Part shown: piece after piece, positions 44,101 to 53,100 of the stretch
How the letters are laid out: every line of letters begins with the position of its first letter
Numbering within the stretch: the stretch's first letter is position 1
Origin: Eublepharis macularius
Taxonomy: Eukaryota > Chordata > Lepidosauria > Squamata > Eublepharidae
Assembly: GCF_028583425.1 (NCBI RefSeq)
Contig: NC_072797.1
Span: forward strand, 20,494,001 to 20,558,000
Length of the DNA: 64,000 bases
Direction: 5' to 3'
Translations under genes and position numbers: made by a program
The notes under the pieces: model-generated
What the model was told of the DNA's origin: nothing
The model's input: the letters and a program-made list of their open reading frames with translations, nothing else
The model's database searches: none

Positions 44101-47100
44101 ACAGGTGAATATGGAAAATGTGGCTGATGACCCCCCCCCAACATCACATCAACTTTGGCTTTTAGGGGCAGCATGCAGACCCACGTGAGTGACCAAATAT
44201 CCCAGTACCATGTTTCTCTGGACTAGATGTTCAATGTCCCTTTTTACTACGTGGAGATGCTCCTTGATGTCATTGAAGTGTTGAGTTGTTTCGTAGATTG
44301 CACCAGCCGAGCCGGGATGCTGAACACCACTAACTAGCCTCAATGTCTCTCCCATGGAGTTTCTGGAAAGAGACAAAACGATTGTTTTCAGCCAGTTCCA
44401 CTGTAATCCTCTCTAAGGCAAGATGAAAACTTCTCACTGCAATTCCAAGAGTAAACCATTCCTCAAAAACACTCACTTTAAGTAGCAGGATCCAACTGGA
44501 TCAGAGAAAGAGGGGAGAAGCAGAGCACCAGAACAAGAGGTCTCTTCTCTCCCTCTCCTAGCACAATAGCAATTGATGCTCTCCCAAAATTCTCTCTTTA
44601 GGTAACCTGCAATGCAGCAAATGGGAGAGAACAGCAGAGAAGTATAAGGGGGGAGGGTATCCTGCCAAAGACTGGGGAAAGAGGGCCAACAAAGCCCTTT
44701 GCCTGGGCTATGTTGCTTATGGGAACCAGTTGACATGACTCAAAATAACACCCCCACACCCTGGTTAAAGCTTCAGTTTGCATGGGGCAGAAAAGCAGCG
44801 ACAAGTTCCTTGCGTAGATCCATTGTGCTGGCTGTGATTGAACAAGGCATCTTGCCCCTATCTAGACACACCGGGACAGGCATTAGAGGAGAGTGCAGTT
44901 CCACCAACCTGCAGCTACTTAGGGGCACCAAAACATATGCTCCAGTTTTAAATTGTAAGCTGCTTGAGGGCTTGTCCTCATCATTACATTTATATCTCAC
45001 TTTTCTTCCAGTCAGGCAAGTCAGGGCTTTGTTAAGGATCATGACCAGACCCAGACCTAAAATTTCTAGAAATTTTGAAACCATGGGTGAGGGGGATAGA
45101 CATTCTGAGGAAAACTGAAAAAAAACGCTATAGATAGCCCAGGAGAGCCTGATCTCAGAAGCTAAGCAGGGGCAGCCTTGGTTAGCAATTGGATGGGAGA
45201 CTTCCAGTGAAGACCAGGGTTGCAAGGTAGGCAATGGCAAACCACCTGTGTTAGTCTCTTGCCATGAAAACCCTTGCCAGGAGTTGCCATAAGTCAACTA
45301 TGACTCAAGGGCAGGATTTCATTCATTCAATAATAATATTTGATTTATATACCAGGACAACTTAATGCCTGCTCAGAGCGGTTTACAAAGTGTGTTATGT
45401 ACTTTGCTATCAAGGTAAAAGGTAATCCCCTGTGCATGCACCGAGTCATTACTGACCCATGGGGGGGACATCATATCACAACATTTTCTTGGCAGACTAT
45501 TTGTTGCAGGGTGGATTGCCATTGCTTTCCCAGTCATCTACACTTTACCCCCAGGAACCCCGGGAGGATGGAAGGCTGAGTCAACCTTGAGCCGGCTACT
45601 TGAATCCGGCTTCCGCCAGGATCGAACTCACGTCGTGAGCAGAGCTTGGGCTGAAGTACTGCAGCTTACCACTCTGAGCCATGGGGCTCTTTGCTATCAA
45701 ATCTAAACTAATTTTTATGCCCTAACATAATACTGCATCATTTATAACAAGATAGCATATAAAACGGTACTATTTTTATATATATGGAATTTAAAAGTAG
45801 ACACATCTTAAGTTTCTCCAAATAAAATATACCTAATACCTGAGAGATGGCTGCAAACTAATATACCCTATCCTAACTAAGCACACGTATCTTACATTTT
45901 TTTCCTGCTCTTTAGACAACGAAGCAAGAAAATAAATTTTGTATATTCGGCCAGAAACACATTCTCAATAGGACTACCAGTACATTTGGCTATCAAGTTA
46001 AGTTTTATAACACTAAACTCTAATGATTTATGATCAAATCGCATTATAGCATATCGCCAAAATTATTCACATTTAAATAAACATATCTGAAAATGTGTAT
46101 GTCTACAGTATACATAGGAATTGACATTATCAGCATCATCTAGCACTACAGATTTGTAGAACTGTAGTGCTACTTAGAAGAGTTAAAAAGGTAAAGGTAG
46201 TCCCCAGTACAAGCACCAAGTCATTACTGATCCACAGGGGGACGTCACATCACAACGTTTGCCTTCCCCAGTCATCTACACTTTACCCCCAGGAAACTGG
46301 GTACTCATTTTACCGACCTTGGGTGGAAGGCTGAATCAACCTTGAGCCGGCTACCTGAACCTGACTTCCACCAGGACCGAACTCAGTTTGTGAGCAGAGC
46401 TTGGGCTGCAGTACTGCAGCTTACCACTCTGCACCACGGGCAGTTAAACCTTCTCTTAAAAAATCATTTCAAAGGAAAAAATATTTCAAAGGAGAGTGTA
46501 ATGACTGAGGACTGAGAGAGAGAAGAAAGCAGGCTAGCTGTGTGCTGCCTGAATATGTTGGAGTGTTTATGAGAGAAATATAACCTGTGTGGAACCTAAA
46601 CTGAGCATGTTTGTGAAAGGACACTCAGTCAGGGAAAGAGAGGCCAGCTGTGGGAATGAGAGTAAATGAAGTAACTTTAAGAACTAAGAACTACTTTTAT
46701 GAAACCAATACGCTTCTTGAAAAATAAACATTTATTTTGTTTTATTATATCCCAGTGTAGCTGTCATTGCTATATCCCATTCATATCCTCAGGCCACATA
46801 GAACCACGAAGGAGCCTGACGCTTAAACACGTTACCAAAGGGGAAATTTGAATAAAATATTTTGGAATAATACATTCCTGGTGGCAGCAAACTACCCAGA
46901 GGGTGTAAGGGGAAGATTAAAAGAAAAATCTACCCCAAAGAAAGTGAAGATCATAACAAGTGATGTCATAACAAGTGATGTCCTGAGGAGAAGAAAATAT
47001 TTTAAGGGGGATATAATAGCCTGAGAGGAAGGAACATTGAGAGAAAGGCATTCTGAAGGGACAGATAGCCAAGGAGACAGAGTGTTCAGTTAAATCCTAT

Positions 47101-50100
47101 GAGAAATATAGAACTGTTATAAAGGAAAGACACAGAAGAACTAGTAGGATGTATAAGAGAGAACATGATCTGGTGAAGTTTAGTACAACTTTAGAAGGAA
47201 CTAAAAGTAAAAGAGAAATGGCAGAGTTTATGGGGATGAAAAAGAAGGCTCTCATTCAGAAGTGCATAGAGTTAAATTTACCTCATGAGGGGAAAAGTGT
47301 AGAAGAACTGAAAGTTATACTGATACAGAGCAGTGTGGAGCCAAGTAGAACTGCAGAGGAAACCCTGAGAGAATGTACAACCCTAATCCAGAATATTTAG
47401 AATTTCTGAGGGAAAAGCTGAAAGCTGAAATGGAACAAAAACAAAGGGAAAGGGAAGCTGAAATAGAACAAAAACAATTTGAGAGGGAAAAGTGGAAAGC
47501 TGAAATGGAACTTAGAGTTCAAGAGATGGAAAGACACACCAGTTTGGAAGCTGAAAGATTACAATTAGAAAGAGAGAGATTTAAGAATGGGGACAAAAAG
47601 GAGGGATACTCTGAACCCAGAGCTGATTTACCTCGAGTTACCCCAAAAGATTTTATGGTGTATGTGTCAGGAGAAGACCCACAAATTTTCCTGTCCACTT
47701 TTGAACGATCTGCTCAGAACTGGGAAATACCAGAGACACAATATATGAAGTATTTACCCAGCTTAATTAGAGGGGAATTGGCTGAGATCTACAACACATT
47801 TCCCTCAGATAAACCTGTTGTTTATGCTGAATACAAAGAGGCAGTATATGACAGATTTAGGCTAGGTCCTGATTACTTCAGAAAAAAGTTCAGAAGCCTA
47901 GTGCCTCAGAAAGAGAAGTCATTTAAGACTTTTAGTGCCAAACTGACAGACTATTTTGATAAGTGGATTTCGTCTGCCAAAGCTAACTCTAAAGAGGGAA
48001 TAAGGGATCTAATGATTTTGGATCAGTTTTTATTTCAACTTCCTTCAGAGATCAGACTTCTGGTTAAAGACAAACTTCCAGAGAATGTCAACCAAGCATC
48101 AGAGTGGGCAGACACTTAACACTTAATAGAGGAGGATGGGATTGCTGTGAAAAGAAAGACTATTCTTATAAACCAGAGTTTAAATCAAGTAAAGGACAAG
48201 AGGGAGAAAGGAAAGGAACATATGAGAGAGCTGAGATTATAAAAAGTCAAGATAAAAATATAGAAAGAAACCAAGATGGATACTGGAATGATAGAAGATG
48301 TTATGTATGTGGTCTGAAAGGGCATTTAGCTTACAAATGTCGAAAGAACCAACCCAAGCAAACAATGCTTGAGCATGTAAGGAGGGTCACTAGAACTGAC
48401 TCAGATGATCAGAGTGATGAAGATGATAGAAACTCCAAAGGCTCAACAAACACAAATGAAACTCCCAGTAAGAACACTGCCTTACCCATAAACACTGAAG
48501 AAACAGTCTACTTGTGTGGGGTAAAGACAGATAAGGTTGCTCAGGGTACTGAACTGAGAGAGGTGGTACAAATAAATGGGAGAGCTACTTTAGCCATTCT
48601 AGACACAGGAGCCTCAGTAACACTGGTCAGGGAGGATTTTGTTGATAAGAAAAACCTGATTCCAGATAAACAAATATCCTTGCAAGGTGTGTGGGGAAAT
48701 TCTAAAAGAGTGCCACTAGCACAACTAAAAATTAAATGGAGAGGAAAAGAAGAAGATTTTCTTGTAGCAGTTATTAAAGAACAGAAAATACCGGTAGTAT
48801 TAGGAAGAGATGTAATGGGAGCAAAAGCAAGAATTCAAATATGCACTGACTCCAATGATTTGCTACAAGTTGAAGCCAGGGGAGCAGAAGACAAGCCCCT
48901 AGGTATCCTAGCAACAGACACAATTGACACATTGCAGGAGGGAAAGAGAAAGAGACAAACTCCTGTTAGTATTACTGCTGAAATGTCCCAAGAAAAAGGA
49001 GGAGGCATAAATAAAAACCCTGAGGAGTTTAAAAGAGAAATTATGAAGGATCCTGAGTTAAAGGACATAAGAGAGGAGGCCAGGCAGAATGAGAAGAATG
49101 CAGAAACAAACATTTTTGCATGGGAAAATGAGTTGTTACAGAAAAGGGTTACTAACCTGAAGCTAATTTGTGAAAAAATAGATACATCACAGCAAGAAAA
49201 CTCTTAGCTGGATATAGAAAACAGAATGCCAAAAAAGGCTCTAACTAGCCGGAGAAACCTCAGATTTCAACTAGAGTCCTTAGAGAAACAGAATACACAA
49301 ATTGATGAAGAGAATTTAGAACTCAGAACAGTTGAATCTTTGAAGAGTATGAACCTCAAGATGGCTCAGTTACAATTAGAAAATAAAGAACTGGAAAGTG
49401 AGAAACAACAGCTTCAGAAAAGTCTAGAGCTTATGAAAACCTCTTTTAAGAAGGCTAAACATTTAGAAGTCAGTTACCGAGGTTTGGATATAGAAAACCA
49501 AAGGCTGCAGAAAGCCCTAGAAAACAGCAACAAAAAAATGCAGCATTTAGAAGTGGTGATTTATTTTGCCGTTGTTGCCTTTTTAATTGCCTTTCTACTA
49601 ATGTACAGAAGCTATCAGTCAATTAGAAACAGACTTTGTTGGAGGAGAGAAGCAACTTGATAGTAAAGTTGCTGAACTGATTGAAGACAAATGGAAAGTA
49701 CTAGAAAAGCTCAGCATGTGCAAAAAACAGTATAAAGAGTTAGGAAACTTCTTGAAGGATGCTAGCCTTTTAAATGAGTCACCCAGTGCATCAAACATGA
49801 AGACAGCATGTAAAGAACTGAGCTCAAACCCTGTTCGCAAGAAAGAAATAGACTGTTTAGGAAAGAACAGAATATTGATAGAGAAACAACCAGAAGAAGC
49901 AAACAACAACCTAGTAGAGAAGGCCAAAGCCGAGATGACCTCAGCCCAGCAGTGGAGCATCCCAGAGAGGAAGATGACACCCCAGCAGAGGAGGAACGCA
50001 AGTTAAAGAAACCCAAGACTTTAAACCAAAAACCACAGAAGAGTGAGAAGTGGACTTAACTGGAACTGCAGAGACAATAAAACATTCCCTAAGCCGGAGA

Positions 50101-53100
50101 AAGCTGCACACCACTCTTCTGGAAAAGAGATGTGTTCCGCTTAAGGAGAAGGGGGGGGGAGATTTGTAATGATTCCAAGTAAATGGGTGCATGTGTCTTT
50201 AAATGTTTGGTGAGATAGGTGTAGAGTGGGGGGTGAGAGAGATGAGTGAGTGATATGATTGGTTGATGACACAGTGGGCGGAGTGAAGGCAGTTTTCAGT
50301 TACTGAGGGAGAGAAAAAGAGTTCAGTTAAGGCAAGAGAGGCGAGCTGTGTGCAGCCTGAGTGTGTCCATGTATTTGTGAGGGAAAGGCAACCCGAGTGG
50401 AAGCCTGAACTGAGTGTGTCTGTGAGACTATATATTCACTCTATTTGAAGCAGACAAACTGTGTGTGCGCCTGAGAGAGAAAGGATTGAGAGAGAGAAGA
50501 AAGCAGGCTAGCTGTGTGCTGCCTGAATATGCTGGAGTGTTTATGAGAGAAATATAACCTGTGTGGAACCTGAACTGAGCATGTTTGTGAAAGGACACTC
50601 AAGTCAGGGAAAGAGAGGCCAGCTGTGGGAATGAGAGTAAATGAAGTAACTTTAAGAACTAAGAACTACTTTTATGAAACCAATACGCTTCTTGAAAAAT
50701 AAACATTTATTTTGTTTTATTATATCCCAGTGTAGCTGTCATTGCTATATCCCATTCATATCCTCAGGGCCACATAGAACCACGAAGGAGCCTGATGCTT
50801 AAACCCGTTACCAAAGGGGAAATTTGAACAAAATATTTTGGAATAATACATTTCTGGTGGCAGCAAACTACCCAGAGGGTGTAAGGGGAAGATTAAAAGA
50901 AAAATCTACCCCAAAGAAAGTGAAGATCATAACAGAGAGTTTCTCCCCTCCCTCCAGGGCTCCCCCAAATTTCCCAATTTTTTCCTCTAGAAAAAGAAAT
51001 CAGTGCCCCCAGGCCTTTACATCACTACCTCATACTCTGGAACATATTGTCTTCTGGTCACTGTAAAATGCCACATGTTAATGACACACATGACTTGCAA
51101 AATCACAGCTCTAAGTGCTTGCCAAAGTGTAATCAGTCAGGCAAATCTACCTTCTTCATTTTTCCCACTGGAACGGATATATTTTATCCAGCTCTTGATT
51201 TTCCCGGCTCCATTACTGGTTTTAAAAATTATGCACGTTGAATGTATAACACATTGCAGCGTAAATGCAGAAAATACTGCCAGTGTGTAAAGAAAGGGAT
51301 TACTGGAAAACTTCCAATTTGGTTTCTGAGACTGTTTCAAATCCAAGTCTCCCACAGCTTTAGATAATATCATAATTCCAAAGGAAGTGAAATTATATTT
51401 CAGAAAAGGCAAACAGAACTATACAACGCTCATGTAAGAAATAAAGAAGAAGCTTTAGGGATAAGCGAAGATTTAAGGATGAGGGTCACGATTACCTTTT
51501 ATAGGACAAATTCATTTGCTGCATGCATCAATGCAATACATTGCCTTATCTTGGCATGCCTACCCATATAGAAAACACATTTAAAAGCCATAAAAAGTGC
51601 AGATGCTGAAATTGTGATTAGACATCTAAACGGATCAGATAAGGTAGCTAGCATGTTTCTTAATCAATATGTTTATATCCATTTCCCTATTGGGATGCTT
51701 CTTTCCAGTTGCAAAGAGGATTAATGCCTACCGCTAGATATCATTATATGAATGATAATCCCCTCTCAATGTTAACAGAATAATCAAAATTTGTGTCTCG
51801 AACCAGATTTTCATTTACTTGAAACTGCAACTCTTGGCTTAGCTTCTTCCTCTAGCATCTTTAGAAAAGCACTCTACTCAGCCGTATAATCATCACAACT
51901 ACAAATTTTACCTAATTTCATTGGAGACAGTCACTTCTTTTACTGTAAACACCCAAATGCACTAGAAAGATTTCCTCTTGTCTAAAAAGTTGCCATGCAC
52001 AGAAAGTTATTTCCCATAGTCAGTGAGGACAGTTTTGATGTTTTAAAGAAGATGTTAAGATGACAAACTTGCTTGCATTGCTTTCTCACTTAACAGCTGA
52101 TAAAATTTAAGAGGCACCGAACATGTAGCATGAATGTCTTAGAGATTTCCATCTGATCTAACTGCATCAAGATCGCATGTCTCTCAGTGCTCAATTACAC
52201 CCTTGCAGGTTTCCTGTTTTAAATGGGGCCTGTTCAGCGAGGAAAAAGGGGGTTTAACCCATCTATTATTGCTTGTCTTCATTAATCAAATCCAGGCCTC
52301 CATACTATTGTTAGCCCTTTGGGGTTTTTTTTTTAAAGAGCTATGATACCATAGGGGTTTTTGTGTTTTATGGTTTCATTAGCAAAACCATAGAGGGATA
52401 GAAGAGTTAAACTCTCCCTCCCTTCCCTGTGAGGCCACAATCTGAATTACAACTCCATGTATTATGTTGCTCTTACTGTATTACTTTCTAATTCTGTCAT
52501 TCCATTTTTTTGGGCATTATTTTGAGATGGCATGTCTAACACTTTTTTGCATTGTTTCTGATTTTTGTGGACCTGTCCTATTGTATTGTTGGATTTCTCA
52601 TAGTGTTTGAGTGCATTGTTTTACACTGTCATCTGCTTTGAACAGAAGACAAGACTCACTGGAAAAGAGGAGGTCCCAACATGAGATGGATCGATTCATT
52701 AAAGGAAGCCTTAGCCTACAGTTTGCAAGGCTTATTGCTTATAAATGGGAAGTGACAGAACAGAACAGAACACACACACACACACTCTGCCTCAAGGCTC
52801 AGCAAGAAAGATGGCTATAATAATAAAACAATCAACTTGAATACAATCTACCAGTATCTCAGTTTGGGTAACAGATAAAGAGGAATTTTGTAATCATTTG
52901 GAGAGTCAGAACTACATCTTGAACAATTATGGAACCTCTTTTTAGAGGAAGCAAGCTTGGAGTTTGGGATATGGGAAATCAAAGTTCAGACCCTGATGAG
53001 CTACGAAAGTCAACAAGTTTAGGTGAAAACTTTCTCAGCCTCATCTATTTCACAGGCGTGTTCCAATGATAAGATGAGAAATGTTTATAGCCAGAACGGT

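What the first reader, a model, noticed from the sequence alone, without database searches (positions are those of the whole stretch)
46497..50934. LTR element that appears to have swapped pol for pieces of two host genes
Between gag-protease and the 3' LTR, where reverse transcriptase and integrase should lie, sits a coiled coil close to girdin (CCDC88A) followed by a membrane helix and coiled coil close to cTAGE5 (MIA2). Motifs such as MAQLQLENKELESEK and LEVSYRGLDIENQRLQK are too specific for chance coiled-coil similarity. The element has paired LTRs and a 5-bp duplication, so the host-like part was inside it when it inserted. Capture of two unrelated cellular mRNAs by a Gmr1-like retrotransposon is, as far as I know, undescribed. 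It resembles oncogene transduction by retroviruses, but in a Ty3/gypsy lineage.
Basis: partly seen in the sequence, partly recalled or inferred. Interest (0 to 1): 0.93.

Follow-up and report, generated by a model that had tools for sequence, protein, structure and literature searches.

The report
Gecko retrotransposon carrying two host genes
A jumping element in what is probably a gecko genome has replaced the middle of its own enzyme genes with pieces of two ordinary cell genes (girdin and MIA2) and has since spread that hybrid to many places in the genome.

Summary
The element (46497-50934, GAGAG duplicated on both sides) has Gmr1-like gag and protease, then a piece of girdin (CCDC88A; gecko girdin 84%, E 6e-43) joined in frame to the membrane helix and first coiled coil of MIA2/cTAGE5 (leopard gecko MIA2; sister copy L027 75%, E 1.7e-37). 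It is a mobile family: of 56 places compared, 49 span the protease/girdin junction, 53 girdin/MIA2 and 41 all three junctions. Two places have open frames of 963 and 971 aa. Three relatives with integrase match the window up to 49132 and stop there; one shows gag-PR-INT-RT order, others share the LTRs. An older form, L075, resumes in RNase H after a longer MIA2 piece: the capture replaced the middle of pol, and the window lineage later lost more. Joins in frame at short shared words suggest template switching. Protease variants suggest purifying selection; captured parts look neutral, so their function is unproven. Maize Bs1 and crocodile retroviruses are precedents; I found no report from a vertebrate Ty3/gypsy family.

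The parts
46492..46496 (.). target-site duplication GAGAG (5' copy)
   Evidence: sequence
46497..46958 (+). 5' LTR, TGTAATGA...CATAACA, lacking about 310 bp present in the 3' LTR
47041..47400 (+). N-terminal gag-like open frame, shifted against the SCAN part in this copy
   Evidence: SAP domain E 0.058, below cut-off; the stretch 47039-47572 is 85% conserved in relative L087
47349..48119 (+). gag with SCAN-type capsid domain
   Evidence: PF02023 E 4e-15
48068..49132 (+). CCHC motif, aspartyl protease and linker up to the capture junction
   Evidence: PF13650 E 8.7e-7, PF00077 1.3e-6 (zinc knuckle below cut-off); relatives L084-L086 match 90-92% up to 49132
49124..49552 (+). girdin (CCDC88A) coiled-coil fragment, residues 639-782 of gecko girdin P0010; first 9 bases also present in pol at the junction; stop codon at 49205-49207 in this copy
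49550..49868 (+). MIA2/cTAGE5 fragment, residues 66-172 of P0003 in most copies: membrane helix (49547-49603) plus start of the first coiled coil; frameshift after the helix in this copy
49869..50164 (+). remnant of the pol tail, with a 39-bp unit repeated variably between copies (around 49930-49993), then purine tract before the 3' LTR
50165..50934 (+). 3' LTR (770 bp)
50935..50939 (.). target-site duplication GAGAG (3' copy)
   Evidence: sequence

Best explanation
It is a non-autonomous family of Gmr1-like Ty3/gypsy LTR retrotransposons. In a gecko ancestor, reverse transcription of a parent element's RNA copied in stretches of spliced CCDC88A and MIA2 mRNA (template switching at short shared words), replacing pol from the start of integrase into RNase H. 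The first product joined gag-protease, girdin coiled coil, MIA2 membrane helix with coiled coil, and the end of RNase H, each join in frame. One descendant lost the rest of MIA2 and RNase H and multiplied, presumably using integrase and RT supplied by sister elements with related LTRs. Shown: junctions, copies, in-frame joins, relatives with pol, older form, paired LTRs and target duplications. Inferred: template switching, mobilisation in trans, and that the host part is mostly passenger.
For: Copies: 40 scored places each for gag, girdin and MIA2 blocks (of 225, 135 and 199 candidates). Shared junctions: 49, 53 and 46 of 56 places, all three in 41. Target duplications in other copies: of six tested, GCATC/GCATC and GTAGG/GTAGG perfect, GTCTC/ATCTC one base off, one disagreed (tandem array), two not found in the stretch fetched. 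Relatives: L084, L085 and L086 match 90-92% up to 49132 and no further; L085 reads gag, protease, integrase (H2C2 E 6.6e-23), RT (Ty3 RT in PDB E 1.5e-18); L090 and L091, 5' ends of two pol-bearing places, share the LTR (88-95% over its later part, 76-77% over its first 260 bases). Older form: L075 has MIA2 to residue 231, then RNase H (Pfam 1.4e-16, Ty3 in PDB 0.0015). Splicing: unnamed CCDC88-like proteins P0001 and P0002 carry what reads as intron between ERLEV and SYQGL, where the element has none. Gecko origin: element girdin groups with three gecko girdins (87/82); L075's MIA2 part is 85% like leopard gecko MIA2, which is 75% like Varanus. Shared words: parent L084 GGGAAAATGAGCTAATTT, captured GAAAATGAGCTGTTACAG, girdin ENELLQK.
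Against: Host CCDC88A and MIA2 loci of this genome were not obtained, so shared words on the host side are seen only as protein letters, and splicing only through unnamed models at 49-50% identity. Support for the gecko grouping is modest, and a skink (Tiliqua) ranks above two geckos in the girdin search. Mobilisation in trans is not shown. Features of the parent are spread over different copies: L085, with RT, had no LTR match in the flank fetched and LINE-like frames further on; its integrase-core piece gave no Pfam match and its RT no Pfam RT match; L089, the 5' end of the L084 copy, is only 66-77% similar. L085 and L086 differ by a base in the shared word. L075 and L076 themselves carry stops and frameshifts. 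No expression data.
Confidence: 0.86

Rival explanations
1. The captured part has a selected role: a Gag polyprotein anchored by the MIA2 helix in the ER membrane, with coiled coils for oligomerisation and the Sec12-binding stretch directing it to ER exit sites.
For: Joins are in frame, and places with open frames of 963 and 971 aa exist (768 aa of the first read in L027). The MIA2 piece is the membrane helix plus the region just after it, which a review says binds Sec12 (PMC5572378, passages). Among girdin variants present in 4 or more copies 0 of 66 are stops, 5.9% expected.
Against: N:S of variants shared by 4 or more copies is neutral-like in girdin (48:18, expected 2.74) and MIA2 (23:6, expected 2.80), unlike protease (10:11, expected 2.68). 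Several frameshifting deletions in the girdin part are shared by 2 to 5 copies; 1 of 13 shared variants in the helix region scores as a stop; variants in 2-3 copies include 1 stop of 39 in girdin and 2 of 30 in MIA2.
Confidence: 0.15
2. The captured part is pure passenger: it happened to keep frame at capture, and the subfamily amplified because of its LTRs and gag, not its host cargo.
For: Neutral-like N:S in captured parts against apparent constraint in protease. The derived lineage discarded part of MIA2 and RNase H and reads its tail out of the pol frame.
Against: Rarity of widely shared stops in the girdin part (0 of 66) and survival of very long open frames.
Confidence: 0.6
3. A pre-existing chimeric host transcript or retrogene (CCDC88A-MIA2) was captured in one step.
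For: Both fragments are joined the same way in 53 of 56 places.
Against: No such fusion protein is named among the hits listed for either part, though length filters and the 120-row list would hide some; the join sits at a glutamate present in both genes, as expected for a switch.
Confidence: 0.12
4. Chance coiled-coil similarity or assembly chimera.
For: Coiled coils do give spurious matches; Pfam and PDB gave nothing above cut-off for this block.
Against: 84% and 75% identity over about 100 residues, and the same junctions at dozens of places.
Confidence: 0.01

Closest known systems
Bs1 of maize (LTR element with pieces of three host genes)
   Same: LTR element carrying several transduced cellular gene segments that formed a chimeric gene (PMC13317346, passages seen; the Bs1 papers themselves not read)
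   Different: Plant and three other genes. Its gag and lack of RT are recalled, not seen. Here a vertebrate Ty3/gypsy element with pol-bearing relatives, an older form with RNase H, and many copies
Crocodilian ERVs with captured KIT-ligand and nectin3
   Same: Reptile LTR elements that captured host mRNA and multiplied; in CrocERV31 in place of env (PMC4299795, passages including parts of the abstract)
   Different: Retroviruses, one gene each, captured ORFs reported under purifying selection; here a Ty3/gypsy element, two gene fragments joined to gag-protease, neutral-like
LTR-mediated retroposition in metazoans (Tan et al. 2016, known here only through the review PMC5408686, passages seen)
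   Same: Template switching at microsimilarities between LTR element RNA and cellular mRNA, giving chimeric copies, in vertebrates too
   Different: The passages speak of retrocopies of genes; here the chimera became a family with derived subforms
Gmr1-like Ty3/gypsy elements
   Same: SCAN gag (reported in over half of frog Gmr elements, PMC4131045, passages seen) and integrase before RT in a sister copy
   Different: Captured family lacks integrase core and RT

Membership tests
LTR retrotransposon | paired LTRs with TG..CA ends, purine tract, short target duplication | tested here: met
   window; copies of L010, L011, L027; three other copies did not show it
LTR retrotransposon | primer-binding site complementary to a tRNA | not tested
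   not examined
Gmr1-like Ty3/gypsy | integrase upstream of reverse transcriptase (definition recalled) | tested here: met
   in one sister copy, L085; not testable in the captured family, which lacks both
Gmr1-like Ty3/gypsy | SCAN-type gag | tested here: met
   E 4e-15 in the window, 3.6e-16 in L084
Gmr1-like Ty3/gypsy | RT groups with the Gmr1 clade in a tree | not tested
   no RT tree made; the best RT match in PDB is Ty3
Host-gene-transducing LTR element (Bs1 type) | cellular gene fragments without introns between the LTRs, shared by separate insertions | tested here: met
   lack of introns judged only from CCDC88-like models
Host-gene-transducing LTR element (Bs1 type) | capture by template switching at microhomology | tested here: inconclusive
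   element side seen in DNA, host side only as protein
Transducing retrovirus | retroviral pol and env | tested here: inconclusive
   the RT piece of L085 matches Ty3 best; env was not searched for

The most novel reading that the evidence does not exclude
The capture gave a Ty3/gypsy element a new working part: a Gag-protease polyprotein with a host-derived membrane anchor and Sec12-binding segment that places particle assembly at ER exit sites, an env-like step built from cell genes.
Probability: 0.12. Interest if true: 0.92.

Novelty: new variant of a known kind. Interest (0 to 1): 0.74.

Why it matters
It is a case where relatives with pol, an early capture product, a derived family and (at protein level) both donor genes can be seen in one vertebrate, so steps usually inferred for gene transduction can be dated and tested. 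It shows that an animal Ty3/gypsy lineage, not only retroviruses and plant elements, can pick up and spread fused pieces of host genes, moving two cell genes' coding sequence to many places.

Tried and rejected
Chance coiled-coil similarity: rejected. Single aberrant event: rejected. Pol hidden elsewhere in the element: not found in the five frames scanned; the tail is a remnant. L003 as a pol-bearing copy: its break at 48967 pairs with L041's start at 48946, so it looks like an interrupted captured copy. L006, L007, L036-L038 share new sequence from 49615 on and look like one duplicated lineage. IQ-TREE codon runs were slow and no omega was read from three of them; replaced by counts. The first girdin search found only two unnamed CCDC88-like fragments because of the length filter. 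Paper searches: I saw the listings only (15 of 91, 10 of 10, 12 of 37, 7 of 7, 12 of 24, 8 of 20, 12 of 65 and 8 of 11 papers); none of those titles or abstract openings reports this element. Only open-licence PMC papers are held.
Full report
What is there. The window element runs from 46497 to 50934 with TG..CA ends, a GAGAG duplication on both sides, a purine tract before a 770-bp 3' LTR, and a shortened 462-bp 5' LTR. The LTRs differ at 7 of 451 shared bases, K2P 0.0157. Between them lie a SCAN-type gag, a CCHC motif (below Pfam's cut-off) and an aspartyl protease, then the block in question, a short tail and the 3' LTR. The window copy is broken: gag lies in shifted frames, a stop interrupts the girdin-like part at 49205-49207, and the frame shifts after the membrane helix.

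Which host genes. With 49208-49555 as the scored part, 2391 proteins pass E 0.001; the 120 listed are girdin/CCDC88A/GRDN by name apart from a few hypothetical proteins. Best are Sphaerodactylus (84%, 6e-43), the skink Tiliqua (83%) and the gecko Paroedura (82%). For the second block, residues 616-745 of an open frame in sister copy L027 gave six hits, all MIA2: Eublepharis macularius 75% (1.7e-37), Varanus 61%, Pogona 56%. The contig listed for the Eublepharis protein (235,967,456 bases) is almost the size of contig C2 here (235,964,284), so the host is probably leopard gecko or a close relative; this is inference. In a tree of 17 rows the element's girdin groups with the three gecko girdins (87/82, modest). 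L075's MIA2 part is 85.4% like Eublepharis MIA2, which itself is 75.0% like Varanus and 71.4% like Pogona. So the capture is probably younger than the split of geckos from other squamates.

It is a family. Searches of the own genome gave 40 scored places each for gag (of 225 candidates), girdin block (of 135) and MIA2 block (of 199); counts are lower bounds. The 82 loci L001-L082 merge to 62 groups, of which six are 5'-end fragments of copies already counted, leaving 56 places. The protease/girdin junction is spanned in 49 of 56, girdin/MIA2 in 53, MIA2/tail in 46, all three in 41. The places were chosen by similarity to the window, some are segmental duplicates (L006, L007, L036-L038; L059 with L060) and L003 with L041 is probably one insertion, so independent insertions are fewer. 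Of six copies whose 5' ends were fetched, two have perfect 5-bp duplications, one differs by a base, one lies in a tandem array and disagrees, and two showed no LTR start in the stretch fetched. Girdin homology ends at residue 782 in 47 of 73 matching sequences; MIA2 homology starts at 66 in 47 of 70 and ends at 172 in 47 of 70 (loci of one place counted separately).

Relatives with pol and the older form. A piece of L076 that encodes the integrase zinc-binding domain (Pfam 8.5e-10) finds 39 further places (40 scored of 138 candidates). Three of them, L084-L086, match the window at 90-92% up to 49132 and not beyond. L085 reads gag, protease, integrase (H2C2 6.6e-23), integrase end and RT (Ty3 RT in PDB 1.5e-18), in that order; the integrase-core piece and the RT gave no Pfam match. 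The flank fetched upstream of L085 shows gag leader but no LTR match, and LINE-like frames lie further downstream. L090 (5' end of the L086 copy) and L091 carry related LTRs, 88-95% over the later part and 76-77% over the first 260 bases; L089 (5' end of the L084 copy) is 66-77% similar. So the captured family derives from a family with integrase before RT. L075 shows the older state: girdin, then MIA2 to residue 231, then RNase H (1.4e-16) and the pol tail. The capture thus replaced pol from the start of integrase into RNase H. The window lineage lost the rest of MIA2 and RNase H at 49868. L076 has integrase followed by girdin from RLQKALENSN, probably a later recombinant.

How it arose. Each join, read locally in L075 or L076, is in frame, although both copies also carry stops and frameshifts. 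L084 reads GGGAAAATGAG|CTAATTT where captured copies read GAAAATGAG|CTGTTACAG and girdin reads ENELLQK; L085 and L086 differ by a base in that word. Girdin ends and MIA2 begins on a glutamate present in both; MIA2 'NRER' meets pol 'NYS..VQKEC'. Unnamed CCDC88-like proteins P0001 and P0002 (49-50% identical) show what reads as an intron inside the captured stretch. Template switching between co-packaged RNAs at microsimilarities is the described route (PMC5408686, passages). The element-side words are shown; the host DNA is not, because every search for the host loci did not complete.

Selection. The set was 49 loci, after dropping 19 that repeat the same place (L060, a segmental duplicate, among them); other segmental duplicates stayed in. 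Against a mutation spectrum from rare variants, variants shared by 4 or more copies are, nonsynonymous to synonymous: protease 10:11 (neutral 2.68), linker 25:11 (2.96), girdin 48:18 (2.74), helix 8:4 (2.32), MIA2 coil 23:6 (2.80). Stops among them: girdin 0 of 66 (5.9% expected), MIA2 0 of 29, helix 1 of 13. Rarer variants in 1 to 3 copies: girdin 102 N, 34 S, 4 stops; MIA2 74 N, 22 S, 6 stops; protease 62 N, 26 S, 4 stops. Frameshifting deletions shared by several copies exist in girdin. Pairwise dN/dS: protease 0.43, linker 0.66, girdin 0.59, helix 0.69, MIA2 0.80; wrong-frame controls 0.39 to 0.98, tail stretch 0.48 to 1.18. The controls overlap the real frames, so pairwise ratios alone prove nothing. 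My reading: protease is kept by selection, the cargo mostly is not, although two places show open frames of 963 and 971 aa (768 aa of the first was read, in L027).

What it could do. A fusion of Gag-protease with a coiled coil, a membrane helix and the cytoplasmic stretch just after it would be membrane-bound. That stretch of cTAGE5 is reported to bind Sec12 (PMC5572378 and PMC5851698, passages). Assembly at ER exit sites is therefore a testable, unproven idea.

Novelty. Maize Bs1 and crocodile ERVs are real precedents (passages). None of the papers listed in eight searches reports girdin or MIA2 in a retroelement, as far as titles and abstract openings show. I call it a new variant of a known kind.

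Noticed in passing
L076 (G000:C5:92295224): Copy with integrase zinc-binding domain followed directly by the girdin end, MIA2 and RNase H: either a recombinant between pol-bearing and captured element or a second route of capture.
   Followed up: partly
L006, L007, L036-L038 (C20; C1 4.69-6.63 Mb): Copies sharing non-element sequence from window position 49615 on: probably one insertion spread by segmental duplication.
   Followed up: partly
L021, L022, L071 (C4:102287000-102296300): Two captured elements in tandem; two of the LTRs are identical over the 715 bases compared, suggesting LTR-LTR recombination or very recent duplication.
   Followed up: partly
window 49930-49993; L013, L014, L017: 39-bp unit (13 aa, like EMTSAQQWNIPER) in the tail varies in number between copies.
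   Followed up: no
LTR, window 50323-50627; L053, L059, L060, L067: About 110-bp units in the LTR occur in several tandem copies in some insertions.
   Followed up: no
window 45418-45685 and 46193-46440: Two diverged copies (84-97%) of a repeat about 750 bp apart, ending just upstream of the element.
   Followed up: no
L053, L059, L060, L067: About 215-bp extra sequence inside the girdin part at 49290-49300.
   Followed up: no
L003 and L041 (C1:25032540, C1:25040279): Captured copy apparently split by several kb of other DNA, with a 22-bp overlap at the break.
   Followed up: partly
L061 (C4:98635036): MIA2 block joined directly to what reads as the start of an LTR at 49567.
   Followed up: no
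L088 (C4:30622300-30624500): L1-like LINE frames, judged by eye, next to a pol-bearing relative.
   Followed up: no
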